Source of the DNA: DAOVGU01 sp030637775 [NCBI: bacterium]
GTDB lineage: Bacteria > Ratteibacteria > UBA8468
Reading direction: 5' to 3'
DNA: 5,698 nt
Assembly (NCBI GenBank): GCA_030637775.1
Contig: DAOWFY010000134.1
Location: 1 to 5,698 of the forward strand
A program made the translations under genes and the position numbers. This document shows, piece by piece, positions 1-5,698 of the stretch. The notes under the pieces were generated by a model, which saw only the letters and a list, made by a program, of their open reading frames with translations, searched no databases and was not told the DNA's origin. The stretch's first letter is position 1; each line of letters starts with the position of its first letter.

Positions 1-1632
1 CGTCAAAAATCGAGCAAAAATAAAAAAATAGGTGAGATCCTCATCGATCTCGGCTATATCAAGGAGGACGATCTTTTTGTCTCCCTTTCCGAGCAACTCT
101 CCCTTCCTTATCTAAAAGAGATTCCAACCGAGACCTCCTCCGAACTCATTTCTAAATTTCCTCTTTCTTTTCTGAAAACTTATAGAATATTTCCTTTAAA
201 AAGGGAAGGAGGGAAGATAATAGTTGTGATGGCAGATCACACCGCTCCTTCCATCGATGAATTGGAGCTAATTTTGGGCATAGGAATAAAGAGAGTATTG
301 GGAAAAGGTTCTGAAATTACAAGAGCTATTGAGAGATGCTATTATCGACCGGAAGATTCCTCGAAAGTGGAGGAGGATTTAAGCAAGGAAGCAGAGAGCA
401 CATCCTTAGCCACAGATTTTCTTCCCGATGAGCCAGGCAACCTTCTTGATCTTGCTACCAGAGCTCCGATCATCAGAGCGGTAAATCAGATTATCTTCCA
501 GGCGATAGAAAAGAGGGCAACCGATATTCATATTCAATCCTTAGAGAATAGTCTAAAGGTACGCTATCGGATCGATGGTCTTCTTTATGATGCCTTTGAT
601 TTTCCCCGGAGGTTTCAGCCGGCAATCGTCTCCCGGATAAAGGTCATCTCCAGACTCAATATTGCTGAACGGCGCTTACCCCAAGATGGAAGAACTACGA
701 TCAAGTTTGATGAGCGGGAACTTGATATCCGCATCTCGATCATGCCTACCTTCTTTGGCGAGAATGTGGTGCTTCGTCTCTTGGATAAAGCCACCTTTCT
801 TTTTGGTTTGGGATCTCTGGGACTCTGCCCTGAGAACTTCAATATCTTCAGCCATCTGATTGGGAGTGATCATGGTATTATTCTCTTGACCGGTCCCACC
901 GGCAGTGGCAAAACAACCACCCTCTATGCTGCCCTTGACCGGATTAATTCTCCCACCAAAAATATCATCACCTTAGAGGATCCGGTTGAATATCAATTAG
1001 AAGGAATAAATCAGATTCAAACCAATCCTAAGATTGGTCTTTCCTTTGCCAATGGACTTCGCTCCATCCTCAGGCATGATCCGGACATTATGATGGTCGG
1101 AGAGATCAGGGATTTAGAGACCGCCGAGATGGCGATTCAAGCCTCCCTTACAGGGCACCTGGTCTTTTCTACTCTCCATACCAACGATTCTGCTTCTGCC
1201 ATTACCAGATTGCTCGATATGGGAATAGAGCCTTACCTTATTTCCTCCTCACTTTTGGCGGTGATGGCTCAGCGACTGGTACGACTCATTTGCAAGGATT
1301 GCCAGAGTCCCTATCATCCTTCAGCAAGTGATCTCGAGGGTTTAGTAGAAATTGGCTTAAAAAAAGCTGATTTGGGTAATCGCAGACTTTTGAAAGGTGA
1401 GGGCTGTAAAACATGTCTGCAGACAGGATACCGGGGCAGGACAGGCATCTTTGAACTTTTGGTCATTAATGATGAAATCAAGAGATTAATTATGGAGAAG
1501 AAACCAGCCCATCTCATTAAGAAAAGTGCTGCTGATAGCGGAATGAAGATACTGCGGGCCGATGGGGCAGAGAAGGTCTCGAGGAATATCACCACCGTAG
1601 AGGAGGTCTTAAGGGTTACTCAAGAAGAGTAG
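1..1632 (+). CDS. gspE: T2SS assembly ATPase GspE, 5' partial
   Basis: This is the cytoplasmic hexameric ATPase that powers pseudopilus assembly in type II secretion. The frame is open from base 1 with no stop, and codons 1-75 read as a typical GspE/MshE N-terminal domain (IGEILIDLGYIKEDDL), so the gene starts before the window. A GTG at 226 is only an internal codon. Numbering from base 1 (543 codons), the Walker A motif GPTGSGKTT is at about 298-306, the Asp box ITLEDPVEY at 323-331, the Walker B region DPDIMMVGEIRD at 360-371 and the His box STLHTND at 390-396. A zinc-type tetracysteine pair, CKDC (431-434) and CKTC (469-472), is characteristic of GspE and PilB-like ATPases. All catalytic motifs look intact. 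PilB of a type IV pilus is the alternative, but the GspG-H-I-J neighbours favour GspE. Family length of about 500-570 residues suggests only a short N-terminal piece is missing. Confidence 0.95.
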   Translation, partial: RQKSSKNKKIGEILIDLGYIKEDDLFVSLSEQLSLPYLKEIPTETSSELISKFPLSFLKTYRIFPLKREGGKIIVVMADHTAPSIDELELILGIGIKRVLGKGSEITRAIERCYYRPEDSSKVEEDLSKEAESTSLATDFLPDEPGNLLDLATRAPIIRAVNQIIFQAIEKRATDIHIQSLENSLKVRYRIDGLLYDAFDFPRRFQPAIVSRIKVISRLNIAERRLPQDGRTTIKFDERELDIRISIMPTFFGENVVLRLLDKATFLFGLGSLGLCPENFNIFSHLIGSDHGIILLTGPTGSGKTTTLYAALDRINSPTKNIITLEDPVEYQLEGINQIQTNPKIGLSFANGLRSILRHDPDIMMVGEIRDLETAEMAIQASLTGHLVFSTLHTNDSASAITRLLDMGIEPYLISSSLLAVMAQRLVRLICKDCQSPYHPSASDLEGLVEIGLKKADLGNRRLLKGEGCKTCLQTGYRGRTGIFELLVINDEIKRLIMEKKPAHLIKKSAADSGMKILRADGAEKVSRNITTVEEVLRVTQEE

Positions 1633-1636
1633 GAGG
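1631..1636 (+). promoter_or_regulatory. Probable gspF Shine-Dalgarno, displaced by the palindrome
   Basis: AGGAGG overlaps the gspE stop codon and lies 74 nt before the best gspF start at 1711. If bases 1637-1703 are removed, AGGAGG is followed by ATTCACC and then ATG, a 7-nt spacing that is optimal for initiation. This suggests the palindrome was inserted between the ribosome binding site and its start codon. The last four bases of the site pair with CCTC at the foot of the hairpin. The base positions are seen; the history is inferred. Confidence 0.5.
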
Positions 1637-1703
1637 GGTCAGGTCTCAACATTTGACAAAATGTTTATGTGATAAATTGTCAAATGTTGAGACCTGACCC
1701 CTC
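1633..1703. repeat. Palindromic element between gspE and gspF, possibly REP/MITE-like
   Basis: Two perfectly complementary 27-nt arms (1633-1659 and 1677-1703) flank a 17-nt loop. The outer arm reads GAGGGGTCAGGTCTC and returns as GAGACCTGACCCCTC. The element begins immediately after the gspE stop codon. Transcribed, it would form a very stable hairpin. A perfect palindrome this long is rarely kept by chance, so I infer an inserted non-autonomous element, of the kind mobilised by IS200-like REP-associated tyrosine transposases (RAYTs). No transposase is present in the window. It could instead be an RNA-processing or stability hairpin. It lacks a following T-run, so it is not a classic terminator on the plus strand. 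Confidence 0.85.
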
Positions 1704-1710
1704 ATTCACC

Positions 1711-2925
1711 ATGAATACATTTTCTTATCAGGCGCTTAATAGAAAGGGTCGACGGGTTACCGGAACTATCAGTGCAGCGGATAGAAGAGAGTCGCGACTG
1801 CTTTTAAGAAAGGATGGCTTCTATCCAATTCAGATTGCTGAAAGAGCAAGTAAGGAAGTTTCTACACTTAGATTAGGTTTTCGCTCGCGAGGAAAGGGAG
1901 AAGAATTGGTGGTGCTCTTCCGAGAACTTTCTACCTTGGTAAGTGCTCATCTGCCTCTGGTAGAGGCACTTGGCGCCGTAGCCTCCTCCCTGAGGAACGA
2001 GTATCTAAAAAAGGTTATTTCTGAAATTAGAGAAGATGTAGCCGAGGGCAAAAGTTTCTCAGCTGCTTTAGAAAATTACCAGGGCCGCCTCTTCTCTCCT
2101 GTCTTTGTCCATATGGTGAAGGCTTCTGAGAGAAGTGGCAGTTTGCCAATAGTTCTCTCTCGGTTTGCCGATTTTCAAGAGAAATCCCTCTACCTTAAGA
2201 ATAGAATTCTTTCTATTCTTACCTATCCTATTGTAATGACTATTGTTGGACTCTCAGTACTCTTTTTCCTCTTTACCTTTGTTGTTCCTACCCTGACTAA
2301 AATATTTGCCGAGAGCAATCTTCGTCTACCCTTATTTACCACTATTTTGCTCAAGTTCAGTAATTTTCTCCGAGGATACTGGCTCTTAGTCCTTTTTCTT
2401 CCGGTTACTTTAATAATTGGTATTAGGAGGTATAGCCGAACACCTTCCGGCTCCCTAAGGTGCGATCGTCTTAAATTAAGGATTCCCTTCCTGGCCAATA
2501 TTTTGCGCAAAGCCGATATTGCCAATTTCAGTAGAACACTTTCTGCGCTTCTCTCCGGCGGGGTTGATTTGCTGACATCTTTCGCTATTCTAAAGGGGAT
2601 TGTCCAAAGCCGTCTCTTTGCCCAGAGTATAGAAAGAACAAGACAGGATCTAGGGAAAGGAATACCGTTGAGCAATAGTCTTGCCCGGGGGAAATTTTTC
2701 CCACCCGCTGCCCTTTCCCTTATTGCTGCTGGAGAGAAGAGTGGAGAGATGGAGATTATGCTTACGAAGATTGCTGACCTTTATGAAGGGGAGGTAGAGG
2801 CAAAAACGATGAGGCTGATCTCTCTTTTGGAACCAATAATGATTCTTCTGATGGGGCTGGTTGTTGGTTTTCTGGTTTTGGCAATTCTTCTCCCCATCTT
2901 TGAAATTAGTCAGACAATCAGATGA
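1711..2925 (+). CDS. gspF: T2SS inner-membrane platform protein GspF
   Basis: GspF is the polytopic platform protein that couples GspE ATP hydrolysis to extraction and assembly of pseudopilins. The product from the ATG at 1711 is 404 residues, normal for the family, and begins with the usual MNTFSYQALNRKG-type N-terminus. An in-frame GTG at 1669 and ATG at 1684 would only add residues encoded by the palindrome, so I reject them. The two homologous T2SF domains are visible at about 67-190 and 273-395, each with the repeated signature ASERSGSLPIVLSRFADF and AAGEKSGEMEIMLTKIADLY. Hydrophobic segments lie at about 171-193, 224-238 and 372-397. The stop overlaps the gspG start as ATGA. There is no good ribosome binding site directly before 1711, probably because of the inserted palindrome. 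Confidence 0.93.
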   Translation: MNTFSYQALNRKGRRVTGTISAADRRESRLLLRKDGFYPIQIAERASKEVSTLRLGFRSRGKGEELVVLFRELSTLVSAHLPLVEALGAVASSLRNEYLKKVISEIREDVAEGKSFSAALENYQGRLFSPVFVHMVKASERSGSLPIVLSRFADFQEKSLYLKNRILSILTYPIVMTIVGLSVLFFLFTFVVPTLTKIFAESNLRLPLFTTILLKFSNFLRGYWLLVLFLPVTLIIGIRRYSRTPSGSLRCDRLKLRIPFLANILRKADIANFSRTLSALLSGGVDLLTSFAILKGIVQSRLFAQSIERTRQDLGKGIPLSNSLARGKFFPPAALSLIAAGEKSGEMEIMLTKIADLYEGEVEAKTMRLISLLEPIMILLMGLVVGFLVLAILLPIFEISQTIR

Positions 2926-3446
2926 AAATGAATAGAAAAAATGGAAAAAATGGGACACATCCTAATTTTTATTTATCTACGAGGTCGGAAAAATGGGATG
3001 TGTCCCTATTTTTTAAAAAAGGGTTTACTTTGATTGAGTTGATGGTGGTGTTGATCATTCTTTCCACACTGGCGATGATTGTAATGCCCAGGATATTCGG
3101 TAGAGTGGAGCAGGCCAAAAGGACAGCAACAATGGTGCAGATCAAAAATTTTGAGATGGCACTCCGGCTCTTTTATCTTGACAATGGTTTCTATCCCGAT
3201 ACTGAACAGGGATTAGAGGCCTTAGTAAAGGAACCTGCATTTGGTCGGATTCCCGAGAAATGGCGAGAGGGAGGATACTTAGAAAAGGGAAAAGTTCCTT
3301 TAGACCCCTGGAGAAATCCCTATCTTTATCTCTCCCCGGGAATTTACAATAAGGAGTATGATATTGTCTCTTATGGAAGGGATGGTGAGGAGGGAGGGGA
3401 AGGAGCAGACAAAGATATTGAAAGTTGGAGCATTGAGGAGAGCTAA
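2922..3446 (+). CDS. gspG: T2SS major pseudopilin GspG with an extended leader
   Basis: GspG is the main subunit of the periplasmic pseudopilus. The prepilin peptidase site is KKG before FTLIELMVVL, with Glu at +5 of the mature chain, followed by a hydrophobic helix. The mature part is 140 residues, the usual size. The C-terminal region PLDPWRNPY followed by SYGRDGEEGGEGADKDIESW matches the calcium-binding loop of GspG. From the ATG at 2922, which overlaps the gspF stop (ATGA), the leader is 34 residues, far longer than the usual 6-12 or so. About 22 of those codons come from a palindromic insertion (2945-3014). Removing 66 nt (2949-3014) would leave a 12-residue leader, MKMNRKNGKKKG. An alternative GTG start at 3000 gives the 8-residue leader MSLFFKKG, but only a distant GAGGT (2981-2985) precedes it. 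The gene identity is secure; the start is not. Confidence 0.94.
   Translation: MKMNRKNGKNGTHPNFYLSTRSEKWDVSLFFKKGFTLIELMVVLIILSTLAMIVMPRIFGRVEQAKRTATMVQIKNFEMALRLFYLDNGFYPDTEQGLEALVKEPAFGRIPEKWREGGYLEKGKVPLDPWRNPYLYLSPGIYNKEYDIVSYGRDGEEGGEGADKDIESWSIEES
2945..3014. repeat. Palindromic element inside the gspG leader region
   Basis: Imperfect inverted repeat with 26-nt arms, 2945-2970 and 2989-3014, and an 18-nt loop. The core GGGACACATCC (2952-2962) pairs perfectly with GGATGTGTCCC (2996-3006). An outer A-run/T-run and an inner ATTTTT/AAAAAT also pair, with a one-base bulge near the foot and a small asymmetric mismatch above the core. The element is read through without a stop in the gspG frame. 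I infer an insertion of a short mobile palindrome of REP/MITE type. Size and loop length resemble the 1633-1703 palindrome, but the sequences are unrelated. Confidence 0.8.
2952..3014 (+). terminator. Terminator-like hairpin plus T-run (attenuator candidate)
   Basis: The GGGACACATCC/GGATGTGTCCC stem is followed by TATTTTTT at 3007-3014, which is the layout of a Rho-independent terminator, although the loop (including the inner pairing) is large. The reverse strand shows the same pattern (GGATGTGTCCC then ATTTTTT). It lies within the translated gspG leader, so ribosomes that closely follow RNA polymerase would block folding. Whether it terminates is unknown; it may be only a by-product of the inserted palindrome. 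Confidence 0.3.
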
Positions 3447-3940: not shown

Positions 3941-4672
3941 ATGAAAAAGAATTTTTTGGCAAAAGTACTTTTTGTTTTTCTTCTTATAAATCAGTTAACT
4001 ATAGCCTGGGCAGAATTAGAGAAAGATAAATTCAGTCCGGAGGAATGGGAAAGAATGAAGAAGTTAGGAATTGTCTCTGAGGAAAAGACATTAGAAAATA
4101 AGCAGGAAGGGAAAGGGATTCTTGGAGTAGCCGCTGGTGGTCGGCTGGTTATGCGGGCTAATAACCATACGATATTGGTCATTCTTATTCCGCTAAAGAA
4201 ACTCGACGAGTGGGGAAGGTATTGGGGTCTGGATCGTTCCCGGCCTGCCTATCTTGCGATGATCGATGAAAAGTTTTCTAATGTTACCGTAGAAGGGATT
4301 ACTCCCGGGATATATGAACTTTACGCCAATATTAAATTTTCTCACTATGACTATGATGCTGTCGTCTTCAGATATAAGGTAGAGATGGAAGCCGGAATGA
4401 AGGCAAATATAGCCCTTTCCCCTATTCATGGCGATGTTCATCAAAATAACACTGCCGTTGGAAAGCATGCTCATTTTACCGATTGTCACGATCCACCCCC
4501 TCGCTCCCGTCCTCGAATTTCAATAGCCGTAAAACGGATAGAAAATCTCTGTCATTATTCTTCAATCTTTGCCCTTAAGGAGATGGAAGAAAGATGGGCA
4601 GGAGAAAAAAGTAATATCTATAAAGAATCATATGGTATAGAATTGATAGTGAAAGATCCGTATGGAAGATAA
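3941..4672 (+). CDS. Exported protein of unknown function within the T2SS operon
   Basis: I do not recognise this protein. The ATG at 3941 gives 243 residues with a standard Sec signal peptide: positive MKKN, a hydrophobic core, and a likely cleavage after AWA at residue 24. An in-frame ATG at 3905 would overlap gspH and put extra basic residues before the signal peptide, so I prefer 3941. The mature chain starts with a charged stretch (ELEKDKFSPEEWERMKKLGI), then a beta-rich middle in which VEGITPGIYELYANI (about 117-131) resembles strands of carboxypeptidase-regulatory-like or other beta-sandwich domains. Residues 163-183 hold five His and one Cys (HGDVH, KHAHFTDCH), followed by a proline-rich DPPPRSRPR, and a second Cys-His pair is at 204-205. 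It lacks a prepilin site, so it is not a pseudopilin. It starts 4 nt after gspH and overlaps gspI by 11 nt, which suggests a role tied to the secretion system or its substrate. It could be a periplasmic accessory factor or an exported cargo. Confidence 0.85.
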   Translation: MKKNFLAKVLFVFLLINQLTIAWAELEKDKFSPEEWERMKKLGIVSEEKTLENKQEGKGILGVAAGGRLVMRANNHTILVILIPLKKLDEWGRYWGLDRSRPAYLAMIDEKFSNVTVEGITPGIYELYANIKFSHYDYDAVVFRYKVEMEAGMKANIALSPIHGDVHQNNTAVGKHAHFTDCHDPPPRSRPRISIAVKRIENLCHYSSIFALKEMEERWAGEKSNIYKESYGIELIVKDPYGR

Positions 4673-5018: not shown

Positions 5019-5034
5019 ATTAATCTGAAAGACT

Positions 5035-5083
5035 AATTACGTATATTACTACTGAAGACAGTAGAGAGTTGAGTGTCGTAATT
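5035..5083. repeat. Nested imperfect palindrome in the gspI-gspJ gap
   Basis: The 77-nt gap between gspI and gspJ contains an outer 7-bp inverted repeat, AATTACG (5035-5041) with CGTAATT (5077-5083), around an inner 6-bp hairpin, CTACTG (5049-5054) AAGA CAGTAG (5059-5064). The two are almost concentric. A weak AT-rich hairpin (5018-5038, 8 of 9 pairs) overlaps its left edge. This may be a decayed palindromic element like the other two, or chance in AT-rich DNA. Confidence 0.4.
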
Positions 5084-5095
5084 TGCTGGAAAGTT

Positions 5096-5626: not shown

Positions 5627-5698
5627 CTAAAGTTTGTTCGCTCGGGCTTTCTTATTCCTCGGCACTATCGTGCTCTGGGAGCATAACCGCCAACTCGC
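5627..5698. other. Unassigned GC-richer tail after gspJ, possible repeat
   Basis: This stretch has more G+C (37 of the last 68 bases) than the AT-rich genes before it. It contains back-to-back small hairpins: GCAC-TATC-GTGC at 5662-5673 and TGCTC-TGG-GAGCA at 5671-5683. An ATG at 5623, overlapping the gspJ stop and directly preceded by AAGGAG, opens a frame to the window end. Its translation (MTKVCSLGLSYSS...) does not look like the hydrophobic GspK N-terminus expected here. It may be the start of another inserted repeat that interrupts the gspJ-gspK junction, or a gene I cannot recognise from this little sequence. Confidence 0.3.

What the first reader, a model, noticed from the sequence alone, without database searches (positions are those of the whole stretch)
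2922..3024. Palindromic element domesticated in the GspG prepilin leader
The pseudopilin leader is 34 residues from the coupled ATGA start, and the excess is encoded by a ~70-nt palindrome read through in frame. Computed removal of 66 nt (2949-3014, 22 codons) restores a 12-residue leader ending KKG. Prepilin leaders are removed by the peptidase, which is a tolerant place for an insertion. This would be a mobile palindrome inserted into coding sequence without loss of the mature protein, a case where a cleaved peptide acts as a safe site.
Basis: partly seen in the sequence, partly recalled or inferred. Interest (0 to 1): 0.72.

Follow-up and report, generated by a model that had tools for sequence, protein, structure and literature searches.

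The report
Mobile DNA palindrome inside cleaved leader
A short hairpin-forming repeat that is scattered through this bacterium's genome has landed in the disposable front end of a secretion-machine protein, and related genes in sister species carry other such repeats in the same disposable part.

Summary
Window 2945-3014 is a palindrome read in frame within a 34-codon GspG prepilin leader. It is a repeat: GGGACACATCC has 22 exact sites in the own genome, 20 in ten inverted pairs. The three same-family relatives lack it at gspG; two have 5-residue leaders (MSKKG, MNKKG), and the mature part is 84-90% identical.

Best reading: a miniature TIR/REP-type repeat inserted in the leader. The two IS200-like transposase genes found carry inverted ends of the GGGGWSAS kind but of other sequence, so its own transposase was not found.

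The wider pattern is the interest. A second family (GGGACTGTCCC) has 5 of its 7 paired copies in four genomes in frame inside other prepilin leaders; in three of these genes no start codon avoids the repeat. The window's element also lies in a lipoprotein signal peptide, absent in two relatives.

Caveats: GspG could start at GTG 3000 inside the palindrome; in-frame repeats in genes, and a repeat-built signal peptide, are already in print.

The parts
2922..3023 (+). 34-codon prepilin leader of GspG if translation begins at ATG 2922 (second in-frame ATG at 2928)
   Evidence: open frame; relatives have MSKKG and MNKKG; no Shine-Dalgarno-like word in the 18 nt before either ATG
2945..3014 (.). palindromic repeat; half-sites GGGACACATCC at 2952-2962 and its complement at 2996-3006
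   Evidence: inverted repeat I4; folds; 22 exact half-sites in the genome
3000..3002 (+). alternative in-frame GTG start inside the 3' arm (leader MSLFFKKG)
   Evidence: no Shine-Dalgarno-like word within 18 nt; paired in the predicted stem
3024..3446 (+). mature GspG (T2SSG) after the predicted cleavage G|F
   Evidence: Pfam T2SSG and N_methyl; 84-90% identity in three relatives
1711..2925 (+). gspF, whose stop overlaps ATG 2922
   Evidence: Pfam T2SSF
1633..1703 (.). second palindrome, GGGGTCAGGTCTCAACATTTGACA type, between gspE and gspF
   Evidence: 27-nt perfect arms, DNA fold z -12.4, 53 sites of GGGTCAGGTCT in the genome

Best explanation
Window 2945-3014 is one copy of a miniature, non-autonomous palindromic repeat, a pair of inverted TIR-like GGGACACATCC units. 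It inserted into the A-rich start of gspG, most simply after this species split from its genus sister. The original start codons stayed upstream and the frame stayed open, so the leader grew from about 5 to 34 residues. Prepilin peptidase cuts before the mature Phe, so the mature pseudopilin is unchanged and the insertion is tolerated. Shown: the repeat family, its inverted-pair form, absence at this site in relatives, a conserved mature protein, and comparable in-frame repeats in other leaders. Inferred: movement by an IS200-like (TIRYT/RAYT) transposase, translation from 2922 or 2928, and cleavage of the long leader.
For: Multi-copy inverted pairs. Short leaders without the element in G001 and G002, and an unrelated leader in G003, with 84-90% identical mature protein. 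The start ATGAATA... upstream of the element resembles ATGAATAAGAAAGGT of G002. Same element in a lipoprotein signal peptide, with short signal peptides in G001 and G002. Five of 7 paired GGGACTGTCCC copies in frame in prepilin leaders; in 3 of the 7 leader genes tested no ATG/GTG/TTG lies in or after the repeat before the cleavage site. One Peptidase_A24 gene in the genome. Two IS200-like transposase genes with inverted GGGGTCAG ends.
Against: GTG 3000 offers a normal-length leader. Neither upstream ATG has a Shine-Dalgarno-like word, and the hairpin could hinder translation. 34 residues exceeds the 6-26 given in a review (PMC4471445, passages). No transposase with GGGACACATCC ends was found in this 83.5% complete assembly. 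Insertion edges are not resolved.
Confidence: 0.63

Rival explanations
1. The repeat inserted at the gspF/gspG junction and supplied a new start: GspG begins at GTG 3000 with leader MSLFFKKG, and the upstream open frame is a relic. Then the palindrome is a 5' junction element and only its 3' arm is translated.
For: In-frame GTG at 3000. The paper PMC3733652 warns that N-terminal REPs are often untranslated because translation starts downstream (passages). Different repeats lie untranslated just upstream of gspG in G001 and G002. Five of the 12 places of this element overlap ORF starts.
Against: GTG 3000 has no Shine-Dalgarno-like word within 18 nt and is paired in the predicted stem. The frame is kept open upstream, which this model does not need. 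Comparable repeats in C6, C92 and G001 C41 cannot be avoided by a later start.
Confidence: 0.22
2. The hairpin is a regulatory RNA element (attenuator or stabiliser) between gspF and gspG, and its coding is incidental.
For: Stable RNA fold. A-run and T-run on either side of the stem, as in two-way terminators (sequence). Repeats sit at four non-coding or junction places of this operon.
Against: Not conserved at gspG in three relatives. No terminator-like site was called in 1580-3100, though the scan allows loops of 3-8 only. The same element lies inside an ABC ATPase gene.
Confidence: 0.08
3. Repeat-bearing leaders spread by recombination between prepilin genes, which share a conserved start, and not by repeated insertion.
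For: G000 C92 and G001 C41 have MKKGFTLI before the repeat and KGFTLIELL after it, where the homologue G002 C40 has the motif once. Several long leaders share sequence between prepilin genes. C6, C92 and C159 products are 38-44% identical paralogues or homologues.
Against: The GGGACACATCC element was found in one prepilin leader only, the window's. Flanks of the repeat differ at C6, C92 and C159. The C161 lipoprotein and the ABC ATPase are not prepilins.
Confidence: 0.07

Closest known systems
TIR repeats of TIRYT transposases, TIRtrons (PMC3733652, passages read)
   Same: Inverted repeat pairs; the paper's motif GGGGWSAS fits the ends of both transposase genes here, and RGGGACAC of the window's family is close to it.
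   Different: No transposase with GGGACACATCC ends was found; the window's copy itself has TGGGACAC and AGGGACAC, one base off the motif.
REPINs mobilised by RAYTs (PMC3116915, passages read)
   Same: Two inverted short repeats forming a hairpin, dispersed, in a genome with IS200-like transposase genes.
   Different: Ends are not the GTAG-tagged REPs; the repeat is low-copy (10 pairs) and often at or in coding sequence.
Rickettsia palindromic elements, RPE (PMC10969869 and PMC2229807, passages read)
   Same: Palindromic repeats read in frame inside conserved protein genes without destroying them.
   Different: RPEs are about 105-150 bp and sit in many kinds of gene; here the repeat is about 55-70 nt and the in-frame cases are mostly in cleaved leaders.
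YPAL/RU-2 of Yersinia, locus YPO1552 (PMC2229807, passages read)
   Same: A miniature repeat contributes to a cleaved N-terminal peptide.
   Different: There the repeat helps form a putative new exported protein; here it interrupts leaders of conserved proteins that already had one.

Membership tests
TIR/REP-type miniature palindromic element | dispersed, multi-copy in one genome | tested here: met
   22 exact half-sites against a low control
TIR/REP-type miniature palindromic element | units in inverted pairs able to form a hairpin | tested here: met
   20 of 22 exact sites in 10 inverted pairs; folds
TIR/REP-type miniature palindromic element | TIR motif GGGGWSAS | tested here: inconclusive
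   several copies have GGGGACAC at one end, others AGGGACAC; the window's copy has neither end exact
TIR/REP-type miniature palindromic element | cognate IS200-like transposase flanked by the same repeat | tested here: not met
   two Y1_Tnp genes found, both with GGGGTCAG-type ends of other sequence; assembly 83.5% complete
TIR/REP-type miniature palindromic element | mobility | not testable with these tools
   only presence and absence between species was seen
RPE-like in-frame insertion | read in frame inside a conserved gene whose relatives lack it | tested here: met
   gspG and the C161 lipoprotein; actual translation untested
Rickettsia palindromic element (RPE) | sequence relation to RPE families | not tested
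   no RPE sequence was compared
Prepilin with class III signal peptide | leader ending in Gly, then a hydrophobic stretch with Glu5; peptidase in the genome | tested here: met
   KKG|FTLIE, N_methyl over its cut-off; one Peptidase_A24 gene
Prepilin with class III signal peptide | leader of 6-26 residues | tested here: not met
   34 residues from 2922 or 32 from 2928; 8 if GTG 3000 is used (range from PMC4471445)

The most novel reading that the evidence does not exclude
In this bacterial family cleaved leaders, above all those of prepilins, are a favoured harbour for several unrelated mobile repeat families. Lysine-rich leader codons followed by T-rich codons give the A-run and T-run setting in which these elements lie, and whatever peptide they add is cut off; so targeting and tolerance coincide, and leaders accumulate translated mobile DNA.
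Probability: 0.4. Interest if true: 0.68.

Novelty: new variant of a known kind. Interest (0 to 1): 0.55.

Why it matters
In-frame mobile repeats in bacterial genes are known from Rickettsia and some other repeat-rich genomes, but the papers read here give no rule for which protein sites tolerate them. A bias to peptides that are cut off would be a simple, testable rule. It would also give a natural test of how much extra N-terminal sequence prepilin peptidase accepts, and a warning for the annotation of prepilin starts in such genomes. If the A-rich gene start is a preferred target, it bears on how IS200-like transposases choose sites.

Tried and rejected
Terminator function: no terminator-like site was called in 1580-3100, but that scan allows loops of 3-8 only, so the test is weak.

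Origin of the G003 gspG leader MRNFERLEVWKKAHHKYG from a 23S rRNA intervening-sequence protein (IVP): the likeness was recalled. PF05635 matched one G003 place, in two pieces (C161), and nothing in G000; the leader DNA matched nothing else among the fetched loci. Left unexplained.

Wider class: GGGACWGTCCC was found in 13 of 35 genomes of the class; two sites close together occur only in G000, G001 and G002, and ten others (G003 and nine outside the family) hold 1 to 4 isolated sites. So this second pattern is a feature of one family, not of the class.

The inverted-repeat scan of prepilin leaders is noisy: 13 of 85 upstream windows and 4 of 81 mature windows held arms of 10 or more. Nine of the 13 had no stop between arm and cleavage site; one of these (gspH at C139:3436) is a fold in the end of gspG and one (G001 C209) is not a known repeat here. 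The list of 85 leaves out 6 weak rows of the 92 matches, and one duplicate.

Binomial figures (1.3e-13 for 5 of 7, 6.5e-11 for 4 of 6, 0.004 for gspG and lipoprotein together as 2 of 10) assume random independent insertion and assumed target sizes, and were set after the pattern was seen. They show direction, not significance.

Full report
What is there. The window is contig C139 of a 1.40-Mb, 177-contig assembly, 83.5% complete. The closest named relative found bears the label Candidatus Ratteibacteria (L063, 71% identity over GspF). The window holds a type II secretion operon: T2SSE, T2SSF, T2SSG, two short N-methyl-motif proteins in the gspH and gspI positions, and T2SSJ (H and I are named by position, and the H match is just under Pfam's cut-off). 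gspG can be read from ATG 2922 through 34 codons to KKG|FTLIELMVV. Codons about 9 to 31 are the palindrome, with arms 2945-2969 and 2989-3013. Folds: RNA z -4.8, DNA z -5.4; a 171-nt stretch is less extreme, z -2.8 with 1 of 200 shuffles as good.

It is a repeat family. GGGACACATCC has 22 exact sites in the own genome: 20 in ten inverted pairs (C10, C30, C40, C61, C81, C113, C119, C120, C139, C161) and two single (C46, C136). With up to one mismatch there are 38 against 8 for the reversed control. The copies share their outer arms, mostly beside A and T runs, and differ in the middle. G001, G002 and G003 have 4, 6 and 2 exact sites, with one inverted pair, in G002 C200.

Relatives at gspG. In G001 (same genus) the gene begins ATGAGTAAAAAAGGT (MSKKG), in G002 ATGAATAAGAAAGGT (MNKKG); G003 has an unrelated 18-residue leader. 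The matched part is 90, 87 and 84% identical and starts at query residues 28, 27 and 21. The junction is busy: in G001 and G002 a palindrome of the GGGGTCAGGTCT type lies just upstream of the start, in G002 with a GGGACTGTCCC unit inside it. Only in G000, of these four genomes, is a palindrome in the gspG reading frame.

Where the other copies lie. Of the 12 places of GGGACACATCC in G000, three are read in frame with coding sequence on both sides: gspG, a lipoprotein at C161 and an ABC ATPase at C40. Five overlap the start of an ORF (C61, C81, C113, C120, C136), one the end (C119), and three lie between ORFs (C10, C30, C46). Which start is real at the five was not tested. The lipoprotein reads MKGKNRDTSHFLRHFPICLCRKIRMCPYFLALAFLAGC, against MKKKKISILSLALVFLAGC in G001 and MKKLKILRSVILFVGLAFLAGC in G002. 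In the ATPase the four genomes differ in sequence and length at one loop between IGEA and the ERLLE helix; in G000 it is the palindrome. The G001 loop contains SLRAIAKQSHEIATS and LLAMT, which I recall as the translation of another dispersed repeat (not tested).

Second family, same habit. GGGACTGTCCC has 19 sites in the four genomes, 7 pairs and 5 singles. Five of the 7 pairs are in frame in prepilin leaders: G000 C6, G000 C92, G001 C41, G002 C159 and G002 gspI on C14. C92 and C41 look like one inherited event, which leaves 4 of 6. The other two are an in-frame copy within a 625-codon frame (G001 C257) and one outside any frame longer than 107 codons (G000 C131). Start codons were checked in 7 genes. 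In C6, C92 and C41 the only ATG/GTG/TTG before the cleavage site lies upstream of the repeat, and C6 has AGGAGG 4 nt before its ATG. The window gspG, G002 C159, G002 gspI and the lipoprotein have possible starts inside the repeat. A further dispersed repeat fills the leaders of G000 C134, G001 C48 and G001 gspJ (65 residues); in C48 and gspJ no start lies past it, in C134 a TTG does. For the commonest family, GGGTCAGGTCT (53 sites in G000), 0 of the 16 paired copies examined lie wholly inside an open frame of 80 or more codons (the copy in the window was not in that script and lies between gspE and gspF). A plain reason can be read from the letters: GGGACACATCC and GGGACTGTCCC and their complements hold no stop in any frame, the GGGTCAGGTCT arms do.

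Movement. Two IS200-like transposase genes were found in G000. Both lie within inverted ends, GGGGTCAGGTCTCAACATTTGACA at C119 and GGGGTCAGACCTCTACATTT at C86. This fits the TIRtrons of PMC3733652, consensus GGGGWSAS (passages). The GGGACACATCC family resembles such ends, but no transposase with these ends was found; movement is inferred.

How it most likely works. Prepilin leaders are hydrophilic, remain in the cytoplasm and are removed by prepilin peptidase (PMC4471445, passages); one Peptidase_A24 gene is present. An insertion there that keeps the frame leaves the mature subunit unchanged. The same review gives 6-26 residues for leaders, so a 34-residue form needs a test. Prepilin genes are numerous: 92 matches in G000-G003, of which 85 places were examined after one duplicate and six weak rows were left out. 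Chance estimates are post hoc.

Relation to print. In-frame palindromic repeats in genes are known from Rickettsia (PMC10969869 and PMC2229807, passages). REPs inside genes are known from several genomes (PMC3733652, passages), with the warning that N-terminal ones may be untranslated. A Yersinia repeat forms part of a predicted signal peptide (PMC2229807, passages). I saw no report of prepilin leaders as insertion sites in searches (listings only), and PMC3733652 has no hit for pilin, leader or signal peptide; the library lacks most subscription papers.

Noticed in passing
window 1633-1703: A second palindrome (27-nt perfect arms) fills the gspE-gspF gap; its half-site GGGTCAGGTCT has 53 copies in the genome and matches the ends of the transposase gene on C119.
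   Followed up: yes
window 5019-5084 and 5627-5698: Two more dispersed repeats: the gspI-gspJ gap matches 7 other fetched places (78-93% over 26-67 nt), and the end of the window matches G000 C30 (89% over 72 nt).
   Followed up: partly
L173 and L117, with L184: Prepilin leaders at G000 C92 and G001 C41 contain a doubled KGFTLI motif around the repeat, where the homologue in G002 C40 has it once.
   Followed up: partly
L005, L241, L242, L243: One loop of an ABC ATPase differs completely in length and sequence among four genomes; in G000 it is the window's palindrome, in frame.
   Followed up: partly
L036 / L063: G003 gspG has an unrelated leader MRNFERLEVWKKAHHKYG after a GGGAGTGGGGAGTAG repeat; its source was not found.
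   Followed up: partly
L163, L176, L187, L174: Several long prepilin leaders in G001 and G003 share a stretch like RINVCPKHKTG before FTLIELL; not explained.
   Followed up: no
window 3941-4669: A 243-codon frame between gspH and gspI has no Pfam match at E 0.001.
   Followed up: no
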